IMG/VR virus record: IMGVR_UViG_3300013125_000003
Location: 62,001-126,000 of that record
Strand: one strand, 5' to 3'
Length of the DNA stretch: 64,000 nt
From: a virus
Positions 9,239 to 34,848 of the stretch are shown in pieces. The notes under the pieces were generated by a model that did not search any database, was not told the origin of the DNA, and saw nothing but the letters and a program-made list of their open reading frames with translations. Positions within the stretch are counted from its first letter, which is position 1. Each line of letters begins with the position of its first letter. Made by a program: the position numbers and the translations under genes.

Positions 9239-9733
9239 TTATTGCTTAAAGTAAGTTAGTTCGTTCCCTCTAGAAACGAACCTAACTGTTTTGAAAACGC
9301 AGACTTTGTTGTCCTCATGATACTCACATATAAGGTTTGGAATTTCGCTAGTTCGGTATAGCATTCCGTTTCCCAACATCACTACGTGAGACTTTGATTC
9401 TAGAAGAGCAGTCGGATTCATCTTCGACATGAGAATTCTCCTGAATTCGTCAGGCGTTATCTCGCCTCGGTCCAATCGTTTTTCTAGTTCCAGTTCGCTC
9501 AGCTCAGCTAGCAGCTCGTATTCCTTTTTCAGAACAGCGGAATCTGTGAAAATCTTTTCCTGAAACGATGGAACTACCTTTCCTAGAATGATTGCCTCTT
9601 TCTTAGTTAGGATAGAAACTGGGCAGATTTCGACGATCTCGTCCATGGGTATGTCGGTCCTAGCTAGGACCACGTAATTCGCTCCGCCTAAGTTCTTTAC
9701 AAAAACGTAATCGCTGACGTATGGGTTAAGCAT
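9239..9733 (-). CDS. Divergent SET-domain-like protein between gp46 and gp47
   Basis: A 164-aa protein. The N-terminal part (residues 8-40, VFVKNLGGANYVVLARTDIP, then a DEIVEICPV strand) and the C-terminal part (117-162, GNGMLYRTSEIPN, then VCVFKTVRFVSRGNELTYF) follow the layout of small SET proteins: GxGVFAxRDIxxGEVIExCP, a GxxSLxNHSxxPN loop and a VFxAxRDIxxGEELTxxY end. The cofactor-binding Asn-His of NHSxxPN is replaced here (YRTSEIPN), so methyltransferase activity is doubtful. The intervening region is a charged helical insert (60-105). It overlaps gp47 by 8 nt and ends 2 nt before gp46. I infer a DNA-metabolism-linked accessory protein that uses a SET fold for binding or lysine methylation. 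Confidence 0.7.
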   Translation of the reverse strand: MLNPYVSDYVFVKNLGGANYVVLARTDIPMDEIVEICPVSILTKKEAIILGKVVPSFQEKIFTDSAVLKKEYELLAELSELELEKRLDRGEITPDEFRRILMSKMNPTALLESKSHVVMLGNGMLYRTSEIPNLICEYHEDNKVCVFKTVRFVSRGNELTYFKQ

Positions 9734-10844
9734 TGTTCTGTTCCTCCATCACTTCTTTGTGAAGTTCAACGAACTTTGAAGCTATCTTTTTCTTAAAATC
9801 TAACGGGTAGTCCTTGGTCTTTAAGTATGCTTTGAATATGTCGAATAGGTTAAAATCTTTGTCTGGATCGAACTCGTCGGCGGTTGCCGTATTTTCGACC
9901 CTTTCCTTATCGGTGTACGTGAAAAATTCCAATCTTCGGTGAGTTGAATTAGCAATTTCTTCCAAGAACCGAGGAACCGGAAATTTGTTTGCGAACTTCA
10001 CGTTTATCATCACGTCAACAAAATTATTAGAGAATTGTTCCACGATAGCGGACTTTGGCATGTCCAAAATGTCGAAAATGTCGTACTTTAAAAAGATCGG
10101 CGACTTAGAATTTCGTATGAATTGTTCCTGTATCTCCGGCGTGTCAACTTGCAACCTGTAAAAACCTCTAGTGTTTCCGATATCTCCTCTATCCATCTGG
10201 TAAGGAGAACCGGTGTACAAGATATTTCCTTTTTCCTGCCTGATGTGAATGTGCCCGCTGTAAACTCGCTTGTACTCAGCAAACGATTCTTTTTCTAATC
10301 CTTTTTCGATAGTTACCCACTTGTTGTACTTGAAACCGACGATGTCTGTGTGACACACAACGTACTGACAGAACTTAAGGTGATCAACTAAAATGTTCTT
10401 CACTTTGGCTGGATCGTCCACCCACGGAAGCATCAAAAAATCGTGCTGGTTGTTTATTGATAGGATCTCAGGCGTTTCAAAAACGTGAATGTTGTCTGCT
10501 AAGTTTCCGATTGACCTTAACGAATGAACTTCGCTCTTGTCTTTGTAGTAAGTATCGTGATTTCCGGTTATTGTGAAAACCCCTCGTTTGAACTTTTTAG
10601 CTAGAACAGTAAATAGGTCCAAAACTTCGTTCTGGACTCTGACGTTTACCGCTTCACGGTAGTGAAATACGTCTCCTTCAAAAACCAAGATGTCCCTAGC
10701 CTCGTCGAAATCAGCATCGATCTTCTTCAGAAAAAAATTCATGAAAAAGTCTTTCTGTATCTCAGACCACTCAATTGAGTTGTTGCGTATCCCAAAGTGA
10801 GTGTCACCGATTAAGTAAACGTATCTTATGTTAGTTAGCTTCAT
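9726..10844 (-). CDS. 47: Recombination endonuclease nuclease subunit, gp47-like (SbcD/Mre11)
   Basis: A 372-aa calcineurin-like metallophosphoesterase that forms the nuclease of the gp46/gp47 complex. The family motifs are in order: GDTHFG (13-18), GDVFH (57-61), GNHD (94-97), CHTD (164-167) and SGHIH (196-200), covering the two-metal-ion ligands. The length is similar to T4 gp47 (339 aa). It overlaps the downstream SET-like gene by 8 nt and shares one base with the stop of the upstream gene, implying coupled translation in the recombination operon. Confidence 0.95.
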   Translation of the reverse strand: MKLTNIRYVYLIGDTHFGIRNNSIEWSEIQKDFFMNFFLKKIDADFDEARDILVFEGDVFHYREAVNVRVQNEVLDLFTVLAKKFKRGVFTITGNHDTYYKDKSEVHSLRSIGNLADNIHVFETPEILSINNQHDFLMLPWVDDPAKVKNILVDHLKFCQYVVCHTDIVGFKYNKWVTIEKGLEKESFAEYKRVYSGHIHIRQEKGNILYTGSPYQMDRGDIGNTRGFYRLQVDTPEIQEQFIRNSKSPIFLKYDIFDILDMPKSAIVEQFSNNFVDVMINVKFANKFPVPRFLEEIANSTHRRLEFFTYTDKERVENTATADEFDPDKDFNLFDIFKAYLKTKDYPLDFKKKIASKFVELHKEVMEEQNNA

Positions 10845-11534: not shown

Positions 11535-13103
11535 TTAGCTTATCTCATTCAGTATGTCATCATGAGACTTTTTTGGCCCTCTTGGTTTTTCAGGAGGAGG
11601 TTGCTGCGGAAAATCCTCAGCTACCTGGGGTTGAATTTGCGGAAAATCATCGTCTAGGTTCAATCCCAACGACGGAACGTCAGTAGTCTGAGCAGTTTGG
11701 TACTGGCTTCGCATCTGTTCTTCCAGCGATTGAGTATCGTCATCGTCTGAGTAATACTCGGAGGCTGGATCCGTTTCTTCTATCAGTTTGGAATACTCGT
11801 AATCCAACCTGAACATCTTGAAGCTCTCGTTGTAACCGCCGTCTCTGTTTGCGATAAGCTTTATCTTCATTCTTCTTTCAAGCGGACCTCTTATCAGACC
11901 GAACAATGAATCCACCGTGTGAATTAGGCCGAACGATTCAGCGACATCAGTCATTCCTAAGTCCTGATCATCTACTGCTTCTCGTTTTATCTGAGTAGCT
12001 GATATGATGCACCATTCGTTTCGTATGGCGACTGCTCTGAGTTCCTCGCTGATCGTCTTTACGTTTCCGTACATGTTTCCCTGATCTCGAAGAGGTCTCA
12101 TCAAGTTCAGGTAGTCTACGATTATGACTTTGAACTTGATGCCGGTGTTCTGCTGAACCCGTAAGAAGTAATTTTCTATGTCGATCGCGGTGGCGGAACC
12201 CGCGCCAAATTCTCTAACTTCCAAGTGTCCTAAGTTGGGCACTTTTTCTCTTAAAGAATTTATTCGTTCGTCGATGCCGACCGCATCTTCCTTGGTCAAG
12301 TAAGAATCGTACTCCTTAGTGCGAATGTTTAGGATAGTGGACCCTAACCTCTTCATGTACTTTCGGTCAGAGAGTTCAAGCGTAGCGATACCAACGTCAA
12401 CTCCGCTTAAGAAAGCCCTGGCTCCGATGTTCGAAAGAACCATCGATTTTCCGACCTTCGGCCTACCTTGGAATATGACCAACGTTTTTGGGTTCCATCC
12501 GCCATCTAAGACCTTATTGAAAAACGGAAAACCTGTTGGAGTTCCGACTTTTGAAAGTTGAATGTGGTGATTAGCATTGAAAAAGTTTAACCCTGAATCT
12601 GCGCTAGTAAAAGATAAGTTGAGTTTATCGCTGAACTTAGTTCGAACTTCGTTGGTGATGAGCTCGATGTTATCTGGATTTACCTCTGCCGTTTTTAAGT
12701 AGGAAAGAGTCTCGATAGTTACCTCATTGAGGTTCTTCAAAAGAACGAAAGCTTTGGTATACTTGACTAAGAAATCGTAAGTCATCGATTTTAAGTCGAT
12801 TTCAAATAGCTTTTCGAACTTATCTTCCGGAATGTCAAGGTTGGCTAAATTGGACAACTCTCTGATCTCGTTCTTCGTTGGGACTTTTCGGTATTCAACG
12901 AAGAACTTTTTGACTTCCCTGTAAACTTTTTGAAGAACATCATCGTTAAAATAGTGAGGTTTCACGGCAGCGATGACTTCACGTTTGTCGATCGACTCAC
13001 TATTTTTTGGTTTGATCACTACCTCATTATCGTCTGGCATCAGAACGAAATTGAATATCAATTTCTCCAGCAGCTCGATATTTTCCTTAAAATCTATTAC
13101 CAT
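11535..13103 (-). CDS. 41: Replicative DNA helicase, gp41-like (DnaB family)
   Basis: A 522-aa hexameric 5'-3' helicase that unwinds the replication fork. The RecA-type core starts around residue 185: Walker A GRPKVGKS (213-220), Walker B VIIVDYLNLM (326-335) and ISATQIKR (367-374), as in DnaB/gp41. The N-terminal 170 residues correspond to the helical collar domain. The C-terminal ~70 residues are an acidic then Pro-rich tail (FPQQPPPEKPRGPKK) that T4 gp41 (475 aa) lacks, possibly for loader or polymerase contact. The gene sits in the uvsX operon, 10 nt after a 113-aa unknown gene. No adjacent primase is seen in this window. Confidence 0.93.
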   Translation of the reverse strand: MVIDFKENIELLEKLIFNFVLMPDDNEVVIKPKNSESIDKREVIAAVKPHYFNDDVLQKVYREVKKFFVEYRKVPTKNEIRELSNLANLDIPEDKFEKLFEIDLKSMTYDFLVKYTKAFVLLKNLNEVTIETLSYLKTAEVNPDNIELITNEVRTKFSDKLNLSFTSADSGLNFFNANHHIQLSKVGTPTGFPFFNKVLDGGWNPKTLVIFQGRPKVGKSMVLSNIGARAFLSGVDVGIATLELSDRKYMKRLGSTILNIRTKEYDSYLTKEDAVGIDERINSLREKVPNLGHLEVREFGAGSATAIDIENYFLRVQQNTGIKFKVIIVDYLNLMRPLRDQGNMYGNVKTISEELRAVAIRNEWCIISATQIKREAVDDQDLGMTDVAESFGLIHTVDSLFGLIRGPLERRMKIKLIANRDGGYNESFKMFRLDYEYSKLIEETDPASEYYSDDDDTQSLEEQMRSQYQTAQTTDVPSLGLNLDDDFPQIQPQVAEDFPQQPPPEKPRGPKKSHDDILNEIS

Positions 13104-13113
13104 GTGAATTGGG

Positions 13114-13455
13114 TTAACTTATTGAATAGTACCGTGAAAATTCCGACTTGCTGATGTAAAGGTATTCGCCTCTTCTTTCGAGCGCCTCGGAATCTATGAG
13201 GTCTTTCAGTATGGCTTTTATACGTCCCAAGAATTCTTCGGATTTAGTGTTGTCACCAAAAACGTACTTGAGAGTCTTTACTGAGAATTTTATATCAGCT
13301 GGATTCCATTCCTTTTCACGTGACTCAGCAACTCTAACTAGGTGCGAGATCACGTCGAACATGAAATCCTGAGACGTTGGATAGTTTGGCATGCTCTGGT
13401 GCAATCCCAAAGAATACTTTATGGGAAGAGTTTCTTGAATCTTAAAGTTCATCAC
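13114..13455 (-). CDS. Small protein between UvsX and helicase, possible winged helix
   Basis: A 113-aa protein that I do not recognise. The C-terminal half (IKAILKDLIDSEALERRGEYLYISKSE) has the helix-helix-wing pattern of winged-helix DNA-binding domains, ending in a Tyr/Ser-rich tail. It overlaps the end of uvsX by 14 nt and precedes the helicase by 10 nt, so it is firmly in the replication/recombination operon. The position between UvsX and helicase recalls mediator or loader genes (UvsY, gp59) in T4, but the sequence does not show the helical folds of either. A DNA-binding accessory role is inferred. Confidence 0.7.
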   Translation of the reverse strand: MMNFKIQETLPIKYSLGLHQSMPNYPTSQDFMFDVISHLVRVAESREKEWNPADIKFSVKTLKYVFGDNTKSEEFLGRIKAILKDLIDSEALERRGEYLYISKSEFSRYYSIS

Positions 13456-14638
13456 CCGGTCCTTCCTCTTCCGAGTCAGCTAATTCTTCTGCTTCCAGTT
13501 CGGACAAACCCTCAACTGTTTCTGGGTATTTGAACTTCGGCTTTATGACGTTCTCGTCCAATGCGTGAAGCACGTCCTGTGTAAAGAGACGAGAGGTAAA
13601 GAACTGTCTAACTGGAACTTCATCGCCGTTGTGACTGATGATGTAGTTCTGAGCTTTTGGTCCTGGCTTGAAGTAGAATGTGTCGTTTCCGACTGTAAAA
13701 GGATGACAATCTTTCTGCTCGTCCGGCTTTAACTTTAGGTACTCCTTCTCGGTCAATTTTTTTCCACGGCCGACTCCGCAGCCGACCCAATCAACGTAAC
13801 CCTGCAAGCCAACGAATGGGTTCATACCTTTCTGGTGAGAGATGTGAAATTCGATCTCAATCGGACGAGCAAGACGGTTCTTTCTGGTCTTCGACCTAAC
13901 GATGATTCCGGTTGCAGTCTTTTCATCGTCTCGTAGTATTCCCTTGCTAAGCATGAGAATGATAGAAGCTGCGAATTCTGGACCGCCTCCGCCGCTGGGG
14001 GATTTGCCGGTGTATGCATCGGTCCCGCTGTAAGTGTGGTTAGTGAAGATGAAGGGAATGGCTAAGTTGGAAAGGTCCAAGGTGAACGATTTGAAAAGAG
14101 CCCTGAGCTCCTTAGCCCGAAGACCCATATCTGCTGCGTTCTTTCCTTTCTCGATGTCAGCGATAGATTTGTCTGTGTCTAACATGCCTACAGAATCGAC
14201 GAACAGAGCGATCTTTAGGTCTGAACTTTCCTTCTTGGTCTTTATCATACCATCGACGAAAAACTTAACGTCGCTGATCAGTTTCATCCTGTAGTATTTG
14301 AGCATTCCTAAATCAGCTCCAAACTTCGGAAAGTCGGTTGAGTCGATAGCTCCCTCGGTGTCAATGTAAAACACGTAGTAACCCATCTTCTGAAGCTCTC
14401 GAACAGCATTCATGCAGAGGAAAGTTTTTCCAGCTCCTGGATCGCCAGCTATTCCAATGCTTCGAGTGTTTGGAAAACCTCCGAAGATTGAACCGGACAG
14501 CTGTGCATTTAGTAGGTAATTTCCGGTAGGAATGAACTCGCTGATATCCGCGAATCCCTTTAATTCGACTATTGATTTTACGCGTTTTTCCAAGTTATCG
14601 GTGAACTTCTCAAACGCTTCAAATGGTGTTTTTGCCAT
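13442..14638 (-). CDS. uvsX: UvsX/RecA-like recombinase
   Basis: A 398-aa strand-exchange ATPase that drives recombination-dependent replication and repair. Walker A is GDPGAGKT (65-72); the FYIDTEGA segment carries the catalytic Glu; Walker B is IALFVDSVGML; and the Gly-rich DNA-binding loop is SPSGGGGPEF. The length matches T4 UvsX (391 aa). The acidic C-terminal tail (ELADSEEEGPGDEL) is typical of RecA-family regulation. It is the first gene of its operon, with its own early-type promoter in the 54-nt gap upstream, overlapped by an inverted repeat. Confidence 0.95.
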   Translation of the reverse strand: MAKTPFEAFEKFTDNLEKRVKSIVELKGFADISEFIPTGNYLLNAQLSGSIFGGFPNTRSIGIAGDPGAGKTFLCMNAVRELQKMGYYVFYIDTEGAIDSTDFPKFGADLGMLKYYRMKLISDVKFFVDGMIKTKKESSDLKIALFVDSVGMLDTDKSIADIEKGKNAADMGLRAKELRALFKSFTLDLSNLAIPFIFTNHTYSGTDAYTGKSPSGGGGPEFAASIILMLSKGILRDDEKTATGIIVRSKTRKNRLARPIEIEFHISHQKGMNPFVGLQGYVDWVGCGVGRGKKLTEKEYLKLKPDEQKDCHPFTVGNDTFYFKPGPKAQNYIISHNGDEVPVRQFFTSRLFTQDVLHALDENVIKPKFKYPETVEGLSELEAEELADSEEEGPGDEL

Positions 14639-14693: not shown

Positions 14694-15295
14694 TACGCAA
14701 AATAAGAAACTAAGAGAAAAGCTCCGGCTAAAATCGTGACGTCTGGGTAATCGCCGTTGACGACTTGATGGAAACCTAATCTAACGATTTCGGATTCACC
14801 TCGGGTGAACGGGGATTTGGCTAGGGTAGTCGTAAATTCCAACTGCTCGTCTGGTCGTACGACTTTCGTAAGGTCGATAGCATAGCACTTAAACTTTGCG
14901 CTGATGGGTTCGCTGAACGTCATCGGGCCCAAGTAAAAAAGGTCATCCTCAGTAATGCCGATCTCGTCGATGTTCAACCCTGCTTCTTCCAAAAGAGCTC
15001 GACCGACGGAATCGTAAGCGGTTGAATCTCTTTCTGAATCCAAAGTATCGACCAGCAAGGAAACGTCCGCTCGGTCAGTAGCATGGTTTTGAAACTTGAC
15101 GCCGTAGATGTAAGAGATCTTGTCTTCCTCGTTTCTCTCGAACGGAATGATAGCTATGAAGTTGGATTTCGACACGAGTCTGTTATCCTTATCGGTGTTT
15201 CTGCTTAGAGAAACCAGGTCGAATTTTCCTCCTTCAAGCGGAGTGATCGTTTTAACGATCTTTGCCGGTTCCAGAGGGTTTGAATTATTGGTCAT
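14693..15295 (-). CDS. Nudix-fold-like protein with degenerate Nudix box
   Basis: A 200-aa protein. The segment GRALLEEAGLNIDEIG resembles the helix of the Nudix box (REUXEEXGU), preceded by a strand-loop region and followed by YLGPMTFSEPISAKFKCYAIDLT, a typical Nudix beta-sheet order. But Ala replaces the first Glu of REUxEE and the upstream G-x5-E element is not in register, so hydrolase activity (for example on nucleoside diphosphate derivatives) is uncertain. A hydrophobic stretch ends the protein (VTILAGAFLLVSYFA). It is the last gene of the dUTPase/polymerase operon and overlaps its upstream neighbour by 11 nt. Confidence 0.6.
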   Translation of the reverse strand: MTNNSNPLEPAKIVKTITPLEGGKFDLVSLSRNTDKDNRLVSKSNFIAIIPFERNEEDKISYIYGVKFQNHATDRADVSLLVDTLDSERDSTAYDSVGRALLEEAGLNIDEIGITEDDLFYLGPMTFSEPISAKFKCYAIDLTKVVRPDEQLEFTTTLAKSPFTRGESEIVRLGFHQVVNGDYPDVTILAGAFLLVSYFA

Positions 15296-15998
15296 CTTCC
15301 TTTTTCTTTTTGTCCTGGCCCATGAACGTGCGCACGGAAGCCTTGATAGCGTCTAGCGTTATGCTGTTATTTATATGGGCGGACAGCTGGTCGAGGAACT
15401 GCTCCTTGTCCTGAGAATTAGTAAACATCATCTTTAGAAGGTTCTTTGCTGGAAGCTGGACAGATACCTTAAGGTTGACGTCAGTCTCTTCTACCGAGAA
15501 CATTCCAAACAGGCCCTTAGTGTCGATTTGGATTTGTTGTCTCTGCTGCGCTGGCGGGTCAGGACTGCCGCTTACTCCTGTGGCAAAACCGACATCAGAC
15601 GGTCCTGAAACTCCAAGGTTTTTCTGGCTAGGTTGAAGGGTAGAAAGAGATTGCAAGTCAGCCGGAAGGTCCTTTTTGACAGCATCCAAGTCTACTTCCG
15701 GTTCAACGTAAATTGATAGAACCTCGTCTCTGGTCAACGGCGGTTGGTCCTCGTGAAGCATCATAAGGTTATTTGTGAGAGCTTCTGACTCTATCCTTGA
15801 CTGGTCTGACAGAACCGCCAAGTAAGTTTGGACGGGTCCGTTTACCGTGTTTATGCGCCGGCCTGGTATGACGTCAATGACCGTCACAACCGTTCCTAGT
15901 TTCTGTCTCTCAGATGCTGGCGGTTTTATCCACTGGAATCTCTGTCCCTGGTAAGCATTTTTTATGGACATTAGTTCCTCTATGTCGAATCCTGCCAT
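15285..15998 (-). CDS. Hypothetical protein following the half polymerase
   Basis: A 237-aa protein, unrecognised. An upstream ATG (16046) overlaps the polymerase gene by 32 nt and would add a very basic leader; I prefer ATG 15998, 16 nt after the polymerase stop with an A-rich leader. Residues 1-90 contain a small beta-rich region (KLGTVVTVIDVIPGRRINTV). The middle is a Pro/Gln/Gly-rich linker. The C-terminal ~90 residues are helical (LPAKNLLKMMFTNSQDKEQF) and end in a KKKKEDD tail. It does not contain polymerase motifs B or C, so it is not the missing polymerase half. Function unknown; co-transcribed with polymerase. Confidence 0.7.
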   Translation of the reverse strand: MAGFDIEELMSIKNAYQGQRFQWIKPPASERQKLGTVVTVIDVIPGRRINTVNGPVQTYLAVLSDQSRIESEALTNNLMMLHEDQPPLTRDEVLSIYVEPEVDLDAVKKDLPADLQSLSTLQPSQKNLGVSGPSDVGFATGVSGSPDPPAQQRQQIQIDTKGLFGMFSVEETDVNLKVSVQLPAKNLLKMMFTNSQDKEQFLDQLSAHINNSITLDAIKASVRTFMGQDKKKKEDDQ

Positions 15999-16014
15999 GA
16001 AATTTCTGATTTTT

Positions 16015-17421
16015 TTAATTAAGCTTTTGTTTTTCCGCCTTTTCACTTTCTAACTGAGCCTCCAACTTTTTCATCTTGTCCTTTGTGTCAACACGACCGC
16101 TGTACAACCTCGTAAGAATGGTTCGTGCAGCTGAGTCGAACTTGTTCGTAAATAAAGTGTCGTTCATAGTGAAGATGACATCGTTCGGCACGTCAGCGTC
16201 CCGGTTAGAAATTCGTCCCATGTAAGCATCCGGCGACATGTTGAACTGAATGGTTAGGTTTGGGTACATGGAGTTGAAGTCTCGAAGGGTGATGTACTTG
16301 TAAAAACCTGGAACTGGCTTCATAACGTATGCGCCGTCGTATGTCGATTCCTCGTCGAGATCCTTCTTGTCGTTGGACATGTATCTACCTCTTCCTAAGA
16401 ATTCCCTGCACATGAGAGTTTCGGTGATGAATACCGCGCTGAAAACCTTTGAAACATCGACTCTAGCAAACTTTGAGATAGCAAAAGCTACCTCAAGAAG
16501 CTGCAGTTTATCGTCCATCAGCTTGACAAGGCACGTGTCGATGATGTTGTACTTCACGAAGTTGAAAGTGTCTGACTGCGCTTCTAGCATCGAACCGTAC
16601 TCGTGTTTCAACTTTCCGACACCAAGAACGAGCTCAGCAATGTACTCCAATTTGTAGTTCTCGACAACTTTGTAAGGTTTGGTGTTCATGAAAACTTCCA
16701 TGTAGTCGAGGAGTCCCAAGTGGATCGGCATCTTTGCTTTTCCTATGAGCTTCTCGCACGGCATGTACTTCATCGGCTCGATCTTTAATCGATCGGCTCG
16801 GTTGATCAAGTAGATCCAGTCAAATCCGATCACGTTCCAACCTGTCAAGAACGGTATCTTCGGTAATAACTTGTGAAAGAACGTTCGCATCAGGTCCTCT
16901 TCCTTTTCGAAGTATAGGTACTTTAGCGTGAAATCGGTTTCTATGCCTGCATCCTTAAAGTATTGGTTAACTTCATCGACGAGTCTCTGCTGAGTCTCAA
17001 CGTCAAAGTTTTCCATAGTGGAAAGAGTGTAAACTATGTTGTTCTCTCCGACGAACGTTATGAGGTTGACCTCCATGAGAGCTTTTGCTGGATCAGGAAA
17101 ATCCTGAGAATCAAGCTTTACCTCGATGTCGAGAAAATACTTTCTTGGGCTGTAATCCGAATAGAGACGGGATAGTTCGTCCGGCGTGAGTCTCGACTGA
17201 GTGAGTTCTTCCAGCCTGAACCGGCTGAGCCACTTGCTAGGAGATTTACGTAAAAAACGATTGTCCCAGTTCCTAAATTCGGTAGGGTTTGCGGTAACCG
17301 TCCAGTTGAACTGATCTACTGCTGGTATTGGTTTCTGTATAAACGCAACTTTGCCAGTCTCATCGTAGTAGGAGACGACTAGCATGGCTTCATCGACTTT
17401 AAATTCGGTGCTTACTATCAT
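16015..17421 (-). CDS. 43: DNA polymerase B N-terminal half (exonuclease plus motif A), split gene
   Basis: A 468-aa product homologous to the N-terminal half of T4 gp43 (898 aa). The 3'-5' exonuclease motifs are intact: FLDIEV (Exo I, 96-101), GWNVIGFDWIYLINR (Exo II) and YNIIDTCLVKLMDDK (Exo III). Palm motif A is present as DFNSMYPNLTIQF (Asp381). The frame stops 88 residues after the start of motif A, in a Lys/Glu-rich helix of the fingers (KKLEAQLESEKAEKQ), just before the expected KxxxNSxYG motif B. No motif B or motif C (DTDS) is seen downstream or elsewhere in the window. So the catalytic domain must be completed by a second polypeptide encoded outside, or the enzyme is only an exonuclease. 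No intein sequence is visible at the break. Confidence 0.9.
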   Translation of the reverse strand: MIVSTEFKVDEAMLVVSYYDETGKVAFIQKPIPAVDQFNWTVTANPTEFRNWDNRFLRKSPSKWLSRFRLEELTQSRLTPDELSRLYSDYSPRKYFLDIEVKLDSQDFPDPAKALMEVNLITFVGENNIVYTLSTMENFDVETQQRLVDEVNQYFKDAGIETDFTLKYLYFEKEEDLMRTFFHKLLPKIPFLTGWNVIGFDWIYLINRADRLKIEPMKYMPCEKLIGKAKMPIHLGLLDYMEVFMNTKPYKVVENYKLEYIAELVLGVGKLKHEYGSMLEAQSDTFNFVKYNIIDTCLVKLMDDKLQLLEVAFAISKFARVDVSKVFSAVFITETLMCREFLGRGRYMSNDKKDLDEESTYDGAYVMKPVPGFYKYITLRDFNSMYPNLTIQFNMSPDAYMGRISNRDADVPNDVIFTMNDTLFTNKFDSAARTILTRLYSGRVDTKDKMKKLEAQLESEKAEKQKLN

Positions 17422-17707
17422 TTTCTTGATTTTCTTCTACGTAATACGGCGAACAGTTCAAGTAATCGAAAGCAAACAGCTTTCGTACGGATTCTTCAGA
17501 AAGTCCGCGTTCCTTCGAAAGAGCGGATATTGCCCAAGCGTACCACTCATCGTGCTGCGCTTTTGTGACCGGGTAAAGTTTGAACCACTCTGGGCTCTGA
17601 AGAACTTCCTTTGGTTGTTCGGCAATAACTTGCTCAACCGTTTTCTTGTGGTACTTTTTGAGCCACCAGTTCAGCATGTCATCTCGAGTTAACCGTTTCT
17701 TTTTCAT
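17399..17707 (-). CDS. Small conserved phage protein of unknown function
   Basis: A 102-aa protein with ATG at 17707 chosen because it lies 16 nt after the dUTPase stop; a longer reading would overlap dUTPase by 59 nt. The sequence (SPEWFKLYPVTKAQHDEWY, then LFAFDYLNCSP) has the feel of a conserved T4-superfamily hypothetical family, rich in Trp and Tyr and ending with a variable charged tail. It overlaps the polymerase start by 23 nt. It probably acts in replication or nucleotide metabolism because of its tight location, but no motif gives a function. Confidence 0.7.
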   Translation of the reverse strand: MKKKRLTRDDMLNWWLKKYHKKTVEQVIAEQPKEVLQSPEWFKLYPVTKAQHDEWYAWAISALSKERGLSEESVRKLFAFDYLNCSPYYVEENQENDSKHRI

Positions 17708-17723
17708 TAACTTACCAAAATTT

Positions 17724-18203
17724 TTAACGTGTAGCTTCCATAGCTTCAGATTTAGTGTCGGTTGACCCAAAACCGCCGTCACCTCTTTCCGATTGAACCG
17801 GAAACACTTCTTCCAGCGTGTTGCACTCTTCCAGGTCAGCGTGAGCTACTGGAATTAAAAGAAATTGAACCAGTTTCATGCCTGGGGCAATTTCTACCGC
17901 TCCGTCAGCTTTTGTGTTGTAAACGTGAATGTGAATCTCACCCTGGTAATCGCTGTCCACCACACAAGCTCCGACTTGAAGTCTCTTCTTGGTAGCTATT
18001 CCGCTCTTGTTGTGCGTGATTAACGCGTAACCATCCGGTACTCTAGCTTTTATTCCGCTAGGGATGAGAATATCCTCTCCTGGGTTTAACCGTTGCTCAG
18101 GAAAAGCTTCTGGAACGAAAAAATCAATGCCAGCAGAACCCAGAGTTCCGTACGAAGGTGTTTTAACCTCCTTAGTCTTTATGAATCGCAGTTTAGGTTG
18201 CAT
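17724..18203 (-). CDS. dut: dUTPase (trimeric dUTP diphosphatase)
   Basis: Hydrolyses dUTP to dUMP and PPi, preventing uracil incorporation and supplying dUMP. All five motifs of trimeric dUTPases are visible: GSAGIDFF (motif 1), NKSGIA (motif 2, variant of RSG), VVDSDYQGEI (motif 3, with the catalytic Asp), a QFLLIPV strand (motif 4) and RGDGGFGSTD (motif 5). The length (159 aa) is usual. It is the first gene of the operon that continues to the half polymerase, with an early-type promoter directly upstream. Confidence 0.96.
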   Translation of the reverse strand: MQPKLRFIKTKEVKTPSYGTLGSAGIDFFVPEAFPEQRLNPGEDILIPSGIKARVPDGYALITHNKSGIATKKRLQVGACVVDSDYQGEIHIHVYNTKADGAVEIAPGMKLVQFLLIPVAHADLEECNTLEEVFPVQSERGDGGFGSTDTKSEAMEATR

Positions 18204-21480: not shown

Positions 21481-22152
21481 CTATGCGCCTTGATCGGCTG
21501 TTTCTTCTTCCTGTGGGGTTTCGTCCGCTTCTGTGTCAGGTTCTTCTTCAAACCCTCCCTGAAGCTTTGAAATGATTTCTTCCAATAACCTAATAGTATC
21601 TGTCGAATCATCGTGAAGTATGCCGGTTCCGCCAGCAGCGGTCCATTTTTCGATGTTACTCTTCTTGTCGTCTATGAGTATGTCGTTCGCCGTCTTGACA
21701 AAGAGTTCCTTCTTGTTCGAAAAGATGATCCTCTTTTCTGGTTCAGCTTCCAGTTCCTCTGGCGTTTCAATACCCTTTTTCTGGTTTATGCCCAAGTTCA
21801 ATTTAAGCCACATCAGCTTACCTTCCTTAGAGTACTCGCTTCGGCTCGGAGCAGACAGAATGTAGGGGCTGTACCTTTCTAAGTAATCCCAAAGTTCGCG
21901 ACCGTCTCCGGTCCAAGGTAATCTCTTCCAGAACTTTTCCTTCCGTTTGTCTACGATCTGCCATATAGAATGACGACCGTGCTTCTTTTCGTACTCGTCT
22001 GGCGTGTGATGGTGCAGGTTCAGCTTCATTCTCTTAAAACCACGATCGAAGTCCGTTAGAACTCCGTCCATGTCGCAAAATATCCTAACCGGTGAAGATT
22101 GGGATTTTTGCTCGGCTATGAATTGCGTGAACCTTAAAACTTTGTTATGCAT
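21481..22152 (-). CDS. HAD-family 5'(3')-nucleotidase-like protein with capsid-tag-like N-terminus
   Basis: A 223-aa predicted HAD phosphatase. Motif I is DMDGVLTDFD (27-36), with both catalytic Asp residues and the GVLxDF context typical of deoxyribonucleotidases (NT5C-like). ILSAPSR fits motif II (Ser), and LIDDKKSNIEKW is motif IV with acidic metal ligands. Before the domain lies RFTQFIAEQ (residues 7-15), whose FIAE is identical to the T4 capsid-targeting tag YQEFIAE. The acidic C-terminal tail (PDTEADETPQEEE) is probably disordered. It overlaps the GroES gene by 8 nt and is last in the ssb operon. Possible roles: dNMP recycling in the cell or, if the tag works, a nucleotidase delivered with the virion. 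Confidence 0.82.
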   Translation of the reverse strand: MHNKVLRFTQFIAEQKSQSSPVRIFCDMDGVLTDFDRGFKRMKLNLHHHTPDEYEKKHGRHSIWQIVDKRKEKFWKRLPWTGDGRELWDYLERYSPYILSAPSRSEYSKEGKLMWLKLNLGINQKKGIETPEELEAEPEKRIIFSNKKELFVKTANDILIDDKKSNIEKWTAAGGTGILHDDSTDTIRLLEEIISKLQGGFEEEPDTEADETPQEEETADQGA

Positions 22153-22468
22153 AATCTTTGAGTTCGAACGATTTGTTTATAGACTTATCTATAATGCCAA
22201 CCAAATCGTTTGCCATGACCAGGTGATAGATCTGGCCGTCGACTTCAACGTCAAAACCAGCGTACCTCAAGTAAAGAACGTGGTCTCCGGGTTTTATCGG
22301 ACAGTTCTTTTGGGAAACGAGGTGGCCCACTTCGACCACTATCCCAGTGTTGGGTCTCTTTCTTGATTCTACTGGCAGGATGATGCCGGTCTCGGTTCTT
22401 TTTTCAACCTCATCAGGTTTTATCATCACTCTTTCGAATAGAGGGGTAAATCCAACTGCGTTTTCCAT
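22145..22468 (-). CDS. groES: GroES-like co-chaperonin
   Basis: A 107-aa ten-kDa co-chaperonin that caps GroEL. The line-up with GroES is clear: PLFERVMIKPDE at the N-terminus, a mobile loop with the GroEL-binding IIL tripeptide (TETGIILPVES), GIVVEVG, PGDHVLYLRYAG, and a final strand leading to DLVGII. It lies between RNase H and the HAD gene, overlapping both, in a replication operon rather than next to the phage GroEL (about 10 kb away). T4 also encodes a GroES analogue (gp31), but that is more divergent; this one is close to bacterial GroES in pattern. Confidence 0.92.
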   Translation of the reverse strand: MENAVGFTPLFERVMIKPDEVEKRTETGIILPVESRKRPNTGIVVEVGHLVSQKNCPIKPGDHVLYLRYAGFDVEVDGQIYHLVMANDLVGIIDKSINKSFELKDYA

Positions 22469-32455: not shown

Positions 32456-34081
<1,626 letters not shown>

Positions 34082-34101: not shown

Positions 34102-34848
34102 TTACTTGTAAATTATATCTGACTCTTCGAACTGGTTTAGCTTGCTAAGAGCAAAAACTATGCGAACTAGAGCGATAACGTCCTTGTTGCAGTACTTTTG
34201 GATGTCTCCGATGTTGCCTGCGTAATACTCTGAGTGAACTTGATCGCCTGCCATCTCGTCCTTCGGAGAAGGAAGGTCGAACACTGCTGACAGAAGGTTC
34301 AACGAAGTAAACCCTTCCTGCCATGCGCCGAAGCTCCACAGTTCGGAAGAATCCTTAACGTCGATCTCCCACGGTTTCTTATCCCAAACCTGAAGAGGCA
34401 CAGGCGGTTCCATTCCGTGAATGAAAGCTCTCTTGCAGATGTACGGAATGTCGAACCGTTTGATGTTGTGACCGAACGGCACGACTTTGTTCTTATACAT
34501 TCCGTTGAACACCTTAGTCGCTTGAACAAGGATAGCTTTTTCGTCATCTCCTGAATAGGAAACTATCTGAACGATCGGTGGAAGGTCAGGATCGTCCTGA
34601 AACTTCACCTTTCCAAAAGAAATGCACACGATCTTTCCGAACTCTGCCTGAAGGCCAGCCTTTTCTAACCAAAGCTGATCGTCTGACATCGCCGCGTTTT
34701 CTGGGTGTTTATCTATTGATCTCAGGTACTCGCACCTGCGGGACCAGAGGTTAGTCATCCTTTCGGATAGTTCGTTGGCAGAAGCTACACTGCCTGCTGT
34801 TTCTACGTCGAAAAATAGGAATTTTTCTATTTCAGATCTGCTGAACAT
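34102..34848 (-). CDS. Predicted 3'-5' exonuclease (PolB-exo2 type, DnaQ-like fold)
   Basis: A 248-aa nuclease. Exo I is FFDVETA (12-18), Exo II is GHNIKRFDIPYICKRA and Exo III is YCNKDVIALVRI, with all DEDDy acidic residues. Between Exo I and II lies ELSERMTNLWSRR..AEFGKIVCISFG, the hallmark of the stand-alone PolB-related exonuclease family (PF10108) frequent in Bacteroidota. It could proofread, degrade host DNA or trim recombination intermediates. Upstream gene of groEL on the same transcript. Confidence 0.85.
   Translation of the reverse strand: MFSRSEIEKFLFFDVETAGSVASANELSERMTNLWSRRCEYLRSIDKHPENAAMSDDQLWLEKAGLQAEFGKIVCISFGKVKFQDDPDLPPIVQIVSYSGDDEKAILVQATKVFNGMYKNKVVPFGHNIKRFDIPYICKRAFIHGMEPPVPLQVWDKKPWEIDVKDSSELWSFGAWQEGFTSLNLLSAVFDLPSPKDEMAGDQVHSEYYAGNIGDIQKYCNKDVIALVRIVFALSKLNQFEESDIIYK

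What the first reader, a model, noticed from the sequence alone, without database searches (positions are those of the whole stretch)
16015..17421. Family B DNA polymerase broken just before motif B, second half missing from the window
Exonuclease motifs and motif A are intact, then the gene ends within the fingers helix. The next gene is unrelated and no DTDS or KxxxNSxYG motif is present on either strand in 64 kb. Splitting of gene 43 is known in some T4-like phages (for example Aeromonas phages, and Rhodothermus phage RM378 where exonuclease and polymerase are separate), but the break point here, between motif A and motif B inside the catalytic domain, would require two chains to reconstitute one active site. 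No intein remnant is visible.
Basis: partly seen in the sequence, partly recalled or inferred. Interest (0 to 1): 0.7.

Follow-up and report, generated by a model that had tools for sequence, protein, structure and literature searches.

The report
Two-gene DNA polymerase of large phages
This phage makes its DNA-copying enzyme from two separate genes about 46,000 bases apart, each carrying half of the active site, and the same old split is found throughout a large group of big phages, including several grown in laboratories.

Summary
Window 16015-17421 (-) encodes the N-terminal half of a T4-type family B DNA polymerase: exonuclease motifs I-III, motif A and the fingers arginine, then a stop at the fingers tip. 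Motif B and motif C are absent from the window. The missing half lies on the same 131,445-bp contig, 46 kb away, as a 540-aa ORF. It starts 19 residues before the motif B lysine and carries YTDTDS, KKxY and the thumb. The halves tile a full-length polymerase with nothing lost or repeated. The split is not an assembly error: all 46 related N halves and all 79 sampled C halves in IMG/VR are separate ORFs broken at the same place. So are those of Lak phages, 462-735 kb phages and cultured phages PAU, PTm1, pT24 and MA9V-1/-2. Trees put these phages on one side of a 100/100 branch, so one origin is the simplest reading. Best explanation: an obligate two-subunit replicase with a shared active site; assembly and activity are inferred. 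Published support is the co-purifying, active 43A/43B of Aeromonas phage 25. I found no report of the clade-wide, unlinked split in the open literature searched.

The parts
16015..17421 (-). PolB-N: N-terminal chain (exonuclease, N-terminal part, first half of palm and fingers) of the split family B DNA polymerase. Its partner PolB-C lies outside the window at G000:C1:30501-32123 (-), 540 aa, read here as L003:8502-10124 (-), 45.9 kb away on the same strand.
17122..17130 (-). Exo I motif, D98-I99-E100
   Evidence: invariant in 14 diverse N halves; position
16819..16836 (-). Exo II motif, N196..D201
   Evidence: N196 and D201 invariant
16537..16551 (-). Exo III motif, Y291..D295
   Evidence: Y291 and D295 invariant
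16261..16281 (-). Motif A, D381-FNSMYP; first catalytic aspartate
   Evidence: D381, Y386, P387 invariant
16081..16095 (-). Fingers first helix: R443 (aligns with RB69 R482) and K447 (aligns with RB69 K486), expected triphosphate contacts
   Evidence: phmmer alignment to RB69 gp43; R443 invariant
16015..16080 (-). Charged tail after K447 and stop: the break at the fingers tip
   Evidence: same end in all 46 relatives; distances to motifs
15285..16046 (-). Next gene downstream, 253 aa, no family match; overlaps the PolB-N stop; conserved next to PolB-N in the clade
17724..18203 (-). dUTPase upstream of PolB-N (with ORF 17399-17782 between); part of the replication cluster that also holds UvsX (13442-14638), gp41-like helicase (11535-13103) and gp47-like nuclease (9726-10844)
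   Evidence: gp47 name from sequence inspection

Best explanation
The gene encodes subunit A of a two-subunit, T4-type family B replicative DNA polymerase. Chain A (468 aa) carries the 3'-5' exonuclease, the motif A aspartate D381 and the first fingers helix with R443 and K447. Chain B (540 aa, 46 kb away on the same contig) carries the second fingers helix with motif B K20/N24/Y27, the motif C DTDS, KKxY and the thumb. The chains are cut at the solvent-exposed tip of the fingers hairpin. They most likely pair through that hairpin and the palm sheet without any covalent join, so that each chain supplies one catalytic aspartate and part of the dNTP pocket. Shown: both halves exist, are complementary, tile a full-length enzyme exactly, are both under purifying selection, and are fixed in a large phage clade. 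Inferred: the physical assembly, the activity, and that this is the phage's replicase.
For: Pfam DNA_pol_B matches exactly two separate ORFs on the contig, profile 17-155 and 145-414, and the same pairing occurs in nine large relatives plus three huge or Lak phages. In the full-length PHROG 262, chain A covers 72-496 and chain B 501-840 of 856. Motif A Asp to motif B Lys is 87 + 19 = 106 residues against 109 in an unsplit cyanophage. The catalytic residues are invariant across very diverse halves. 46 of 46 N halves end, and all C halves of the clade start, at the same place; 79 of 79 C-half loci lack motif A in their ORF. dN/dS is 0.02-0.06 for the N half and 0.09 for the one C-half pair not saturated. 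Each half keeps its own replication-gene neighbourhood: PolB-N with dUTPase, UvsX and gp41; PolB-C with UvsW and primase. No PolA or PolIII alpha was found on the contig. Precedent: 43A and 43B of Aeromonas phage 25 co-purify and have polymerase activity (PMC2988022), and 44RR of that group is cut at the same fingers tip.
Against: No direct evidence of assembly or activity. The contig is a fragment (131 kb; relatives reach 250-271 kb), so another polymerase elsewhere cannot be excluded. AlphaFold2 models of each chain alone were poor (mean pLDDT 57 and 54): the N chain still matched T4/RB69 gp43, the C chain matched nothing, and no two-chain model could be run here. The K447 counterpart is not invariant outside the clade.
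Confidence: 0.9

Rival explanations
1. The halves are joined after expression, by a split intein or by trans-splicing of the two RNAs, giving one ordinary chain.
For: Split inteins do occur in this gene in relatives: Lak-B2, LR756500 and PTm1 have one at motif C.
Against: No intein domain in either half by the model that detects it in the relatives. No intron or other RNA family in 84 kb. The N-half tails vary in length and sequence and end in their own stop; the C halves begin with their own ATG a fixed 19-20 residues before motif B within the window's clade, and in this contig an in-frame stop lies four codons upstream of it. Splice partners would not need any of that.
Confidence: 0.04
2. 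The N half is a relic or a stand-alone exonuclease, and the phage is copied by another polymerase.
For: The contig is incomplete, so another enzyme could be missing.
Against: Motif A aspartate and fingers arginine are invariant and dN/dS is 0.02-0.06, not expected of a relic or a pure exonuclease. The C half is equally conserved and always complementary. No other polymerase was found on the contig.
Confidence: 0.05
3. Assembly error or recent frameshift.
For: Metagenomic contig.
Against: Same break in more than 100 contigs from many samples and in genomes of isolated phages, with conserved gene order on both sides.
Confidence: 0.01

Closest known systems
Split gene 43 (43A/43B) of Aeromonas phages 44RR and 25
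   Same: T4-type family B polymerase in two ORFs, cut at the tip of the fingers between motif A and motif B; in phage 25 the two chains co-purify and are active (PMC2988022).
   Different: There the two genes are adjacent, parted by an untranslated stretch or a seg endonuclease gene, and 44RR groups with T4. Here the halves are unlinked or parted by other genes, the split is fixed in a deep clade and arose independently: AU test rejects 44RR plus this clade on C halves, p 0.0005.
Lak megaphages and other huge phages (LR756500-LR756504), Tenacibaculum phage PTm1
   Same: Members of the same fingers-split clade.
   Different: Lak-B2, LR756500 and PTm1 have a second interruption at motif C, a split intein with a homing-endonuclease-like gene between, so three genes encode the enzyme. 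The window's phage has an intact C half.
Cultured jumbo phages PAU, pT24 and MA9V-1/-2
   Same: Same split into two ORFs, also deposited as two polymerase genes.
   Different: Halves only 1.2-3.5 kb apart; in the window's clade 38-50 kb.
Rhodothermus phage RM378
   Same: Exonuclease and polymerase in separate genes.
   Different: Break between exonuclease and polymerase domains; motifs A to C in one 532-aa chain.
Split B-type polymerase of Methanothermobacter thermautotrophicus (Kelman 1999, title cited in PMC3984812)
   Same: Family B polymerase in two polypeptides without intein (own knowledge).
   Different: Archaeal; I recall a break nearer motif C, not checked here.
Minimal split PolIII alpha of group 2.2 jumbo phages (PMC7824862)
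   Same: A polymerase encoded in two distant genes in jumbo phages.
   Different: Different, unrelated polymerase family; that paper treats the family B enzyme of these phages as ordinary.

Membership tests
T4-type family B DNA polymerase | Exo I-III with catalytic acidic residues | tested here: met
   D98/E100, D201, D295 invariant; PF03104
T4-type family B DNA polymerase | Motifs A, B, C and KKxY | tested here: met
   Met only by the two chains together: A in chain A; B, C and KKxY in chain B
T4-type family B DNA polymerase | One continuous polypeptide | tested here: not met
   Two ORFs 45.9 kb apart. Not an essential feature: active two-chain members are known (PMC2988022)
T4-type family B DNA polymerase | Polymerase activity | not testable with these tools
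   needs protein
Aeromonas-type split gp43 (43A/43B) | Break at the fingers tip between motif A and B | tested here: met
Aeromonas-type split gp43 (43A/43B) | Halves adjacent, parted by an intercistronic region or homing endonuclease gene | tested here: not met
Aeromonas-type split gp43 (43A/43B) | Common descent of the split | tested here: not met
   44RR with T4 in both trees; AU p 0.0005 on C halves
Aeromonas-type split gp43 (43A/43B) | Chains co-purify and are active | not testable with these tools
   shown only for phage 25 (PMC2988022)
Split-intein (fractured) gene | Intein pieces at the ends of the halves | tested here: not met
   no PF14890 in window half or its partner; present in LR756500 and Lak pieces
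RM378-type exonuclease/polymerase split | Break between exonuclease and polymerase domains | tested here: not met
   motif A is in the exonuclease chain
Fingers-split PolB clade of Bacteroidota jumbo/huge phages | Groups with Lak, PAU, PTm1, pT24, MA9V in N- and C-half trees | tested here: met
   100/100 in both trees; Lak and PTm1 are in the N-half tree only
Moraphages (PMC12619734) | Core VOG set and phylogenetic placement | not tested
   suggested only by 250-271 kb relatives, UvsW, dUTPase and two 'DNA-directed DNA polymerase' VOGs in that paper's core table

The most novel reading that the evidence does not exclude
An obligate heterodimeric replicative polymerase, cut through its fingers, is the ancestral and stable condition of a whole assemblage of jumbo and huge phages (about 0.2 to 0.7 Mb genomes). 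The parting of the two genes into different operons lets the phage set the amount or timing of active polymerase through subunit supply, and independent splits at the same fingers tip show a privileged cut site in family B polymerases.
Probability: 0.35. Interest if true: 0.7.

Novelty: new variant of a known kind. Interest (0 to 1): 0.52.

Why it matters
A replicative polymerase whose single active site is assembled from two freely diffusing chains, kept for long evolution in some of the largest known phages, gives natural split points for controllable or orthogonal polymerases and a tractable test of how cut enzymes assemble. It also warns genome surveys: PolB trees, gene counts and completeness checks that use one PolB marker will see half an enzyme or count it twice in these phages.

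Tried and rejected
Assembly error or lone frameshift: rejected by more than 100 independent contigs and isolate genomes. Intein remnant or intron-mediated joining: no Pfam intein domain and no Rfam match. Full-length or alternative polymerase on the contig: none. The gene lying between the halves in PAU, PTm1, pT24 and MA9V (and near the C half of LR756500) looked like a sliding clamp by eye; profile comparison with T4 gp45 gave probability 1.4%, so the idea was dropped, and the family does not ring in this contig. AlphaFold models of the separate chains were too poor to use for an interface. A MAFFT map of break ends onto T4 numbering failed because the end residues scattered; distances to motifs A and B were used instead.

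Full report
What is there. The ORF at 16015-17421 (-) is the N-terminal 468 residues of a T4-like family B DNA polymerase. It holds the three exonuclease motifs, motif A (D381) and the first fingers helix with R443, which aligns with RB69 R482, and then ends. The window has no motif B and no DTDS in any frame.

The other half. The window is bases 62001-126000 of a 131,445-base virus record. A Pfam DNA_pol_B search of the whole record finds exactly two places: this ORF and a second at G000:C1:31170-32105 (-). The second is a 540-aa ORF, G000:C1:30501-32123 (L003:8502-10124, -), that begins MSLTLEQQIKSLDLKQNAIKILINSFYGAFG and contains YTDTDS and AKKKY. Its frame cannot extend upstream, because a stop lies four codons before the ATG. 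The halves are 45.9 kb apart on the same strand.

They fit. Against the full-length polymerase family PHROG 262 the N half covers positions 72-496 and the C half 501-840 of 856. From the motif A aspartate to the motif B lysine the two halves hold 87 + 19 = 106 residues, against 109 in an unsplit cyanophage enzyme and 149 in T4, whose fingers are longer. On the RB69 alignments the cut falls at the tip of the fingers helical hairpin. Chain A would give the first catalytic aspartate and the R482/K486 equivalents; chain B would give the K560/N564/Y567 equivalents and the second aspartate pair. That these residues bind metal and dNTP is established knowledge for RB69 gp43, not tested here.

Not an error. 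In IMG/VR, 46 of 46 related N halves end at the same place and the C halves of the clade start at the same place. A wider C-half scan returned 79 loci, down to about 36% identity, and none has motif A in the same ORF; that scan was seeded with split sequences, so it does not measure how common the split is among all polymerases. Large contigs of the clade carry both halves 38-50 kb apart. Gene order around each half is conserved: dUTPase - ORF - PolB-N - two ORFs - UvsX - ORF - gp41 - gp47, and UvsW - three ORFs - PolB-C - primase - TnsA-like (the primase and gp47 names rest on sequence inspection). dN/dS is 0.02-0.06 for six N-half pairs and 0.09 for the single C-half pair whose synonymous sites are not saturated.

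How wide. The same split occurs in Lak-B2 and in 462-, 636-, 642- and 735-kb huge phages, and in isolated phages: Sphingomonas phage PAU gp105/gp110, Tenacibaculum PTm1 and pT24, Chryseobacterium MA9V-1/-2. Halves lie 1.2-3.5 kb apart in the isolates, about 11 kb in Lak and LR756500, and more than 100 kb on opposite strands in the largest genomes. In trees of N halves and of C halves the split phages form one side of a branch with 100/100 support. The simplest reading is one ancient split. Several C-half rows have long branches, so inner order is unsure.

A convergent case. Aeromonas phage 44RR has gene 43 in two adjacent ORFs. Its pieces hold 101 and 46 residues on either side of the cut, 147 against 149 in T4, so it too is cut at the fingers tip. 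44RR sits with T4 in both trees, and the AU test on C halves rejects joining it to the window's clade (p 0.0005). For Aeromonas phage 25 the two chains co-purify and have polymerase activity (PMC2988022).

How it works. Best explanation: a non-covalent heterodimeric polymerase. No intein domain is present in either half, although the same model finds it in Lak-B2 and LR756500, and no intron or other RNA family was found. The alternatives (joining after expression, relic, artefact) are each below 6%. Physical assembly, activity and identity as the main replicase are inferred; no PolA or PolIII alpha was found on this incomplete contig.

Extra layer in relatives. In LR756500, Lak-B2 and PTm1 the C half is itself cut at motif C by a split intein, with a homing-endonuclease-like gene in between. 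There the enzyme needs three genes, one join by protein splicing and one by assembly. PTm1's record already says 'intein-containing split DNA polymerase precursor'.

Known or new. Individual records annotate two polymerase genes, PHROGs has N-only and C-only families (2062 and 1918), and the moraphage paper lists two 'DNA-directed DNA polymerase' VOGs in its core set without comment (PMC12619734). The jumbo-phage survey treats the family B enzyme of these groups as ordinary (PMC7824862). I found no paper in the open library stating that the replicative polymerase is split through the fingers across this clade; subscription journals were not searched. I therefore rate it a new variant of a known kind.

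Noticed in passing
L114:784-4184; L115:9573-13337; L141:8390-11196: PolB C half of LR756500, Lak-B2 (code 15) and PTm1 is interrupted at motif C (DTD/S) by a split intein, with homing-endonuclease-like genes between the pieces (DUF7487 repeats plus REase fold in LR756500; annotated VSR endonuclease in PTm1).
   Followed up: partly
L127:2303-5760: In Chryseobacterium phage MA9V-2 the two polymerase halves are parted by two unknown genes and a TnpB-family RNA-guided endonuclease gene.
   Followed up: no
L003:8502-9000 (C-half residues about 375-540): The window's clade has a C-terminal extension of about 160 residues on PolB-C, partly predicted with pLDDT 80-90, absent from PAU, MA9V and the more distant environmental C halves.
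   Followed up: no
L135:1267-2982: PolB-C of the 735-kb phage LR756501 has a longer N-terminal stretch before motif B (81 residues) that looks TPR-like by eye.
   Followed up: no
L140:8036-8851, L127:3495-4439, L141:6414-7253, L142:6869-7768, L114:4705-5469: Very divergent similar-looking proteins of about 250-315 aa encoded between (or near) the two halves in PAU, MA9V-2, PTm1, pT24 and LR756500; no family match, not supported as a sliding clamp.
   Followed up: partly
window 32456-34066 and 22145-22468: GroEL-like and GroES-like chaperonin genes by sequence inspection.
   Followed up: no
window 34102-34848 (-): A second PolB-exonuclease-like protein of 248 aa (PF03104 E 3.9e-5, below the curated cut-off), a possible stand-alone 3'-5' exonuclease.
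   Followed up: no
G008 (contig of L052), C1:32598-33047: The C-half match in this contig is reported with one TAA inside; not examined.
   Followed up: no
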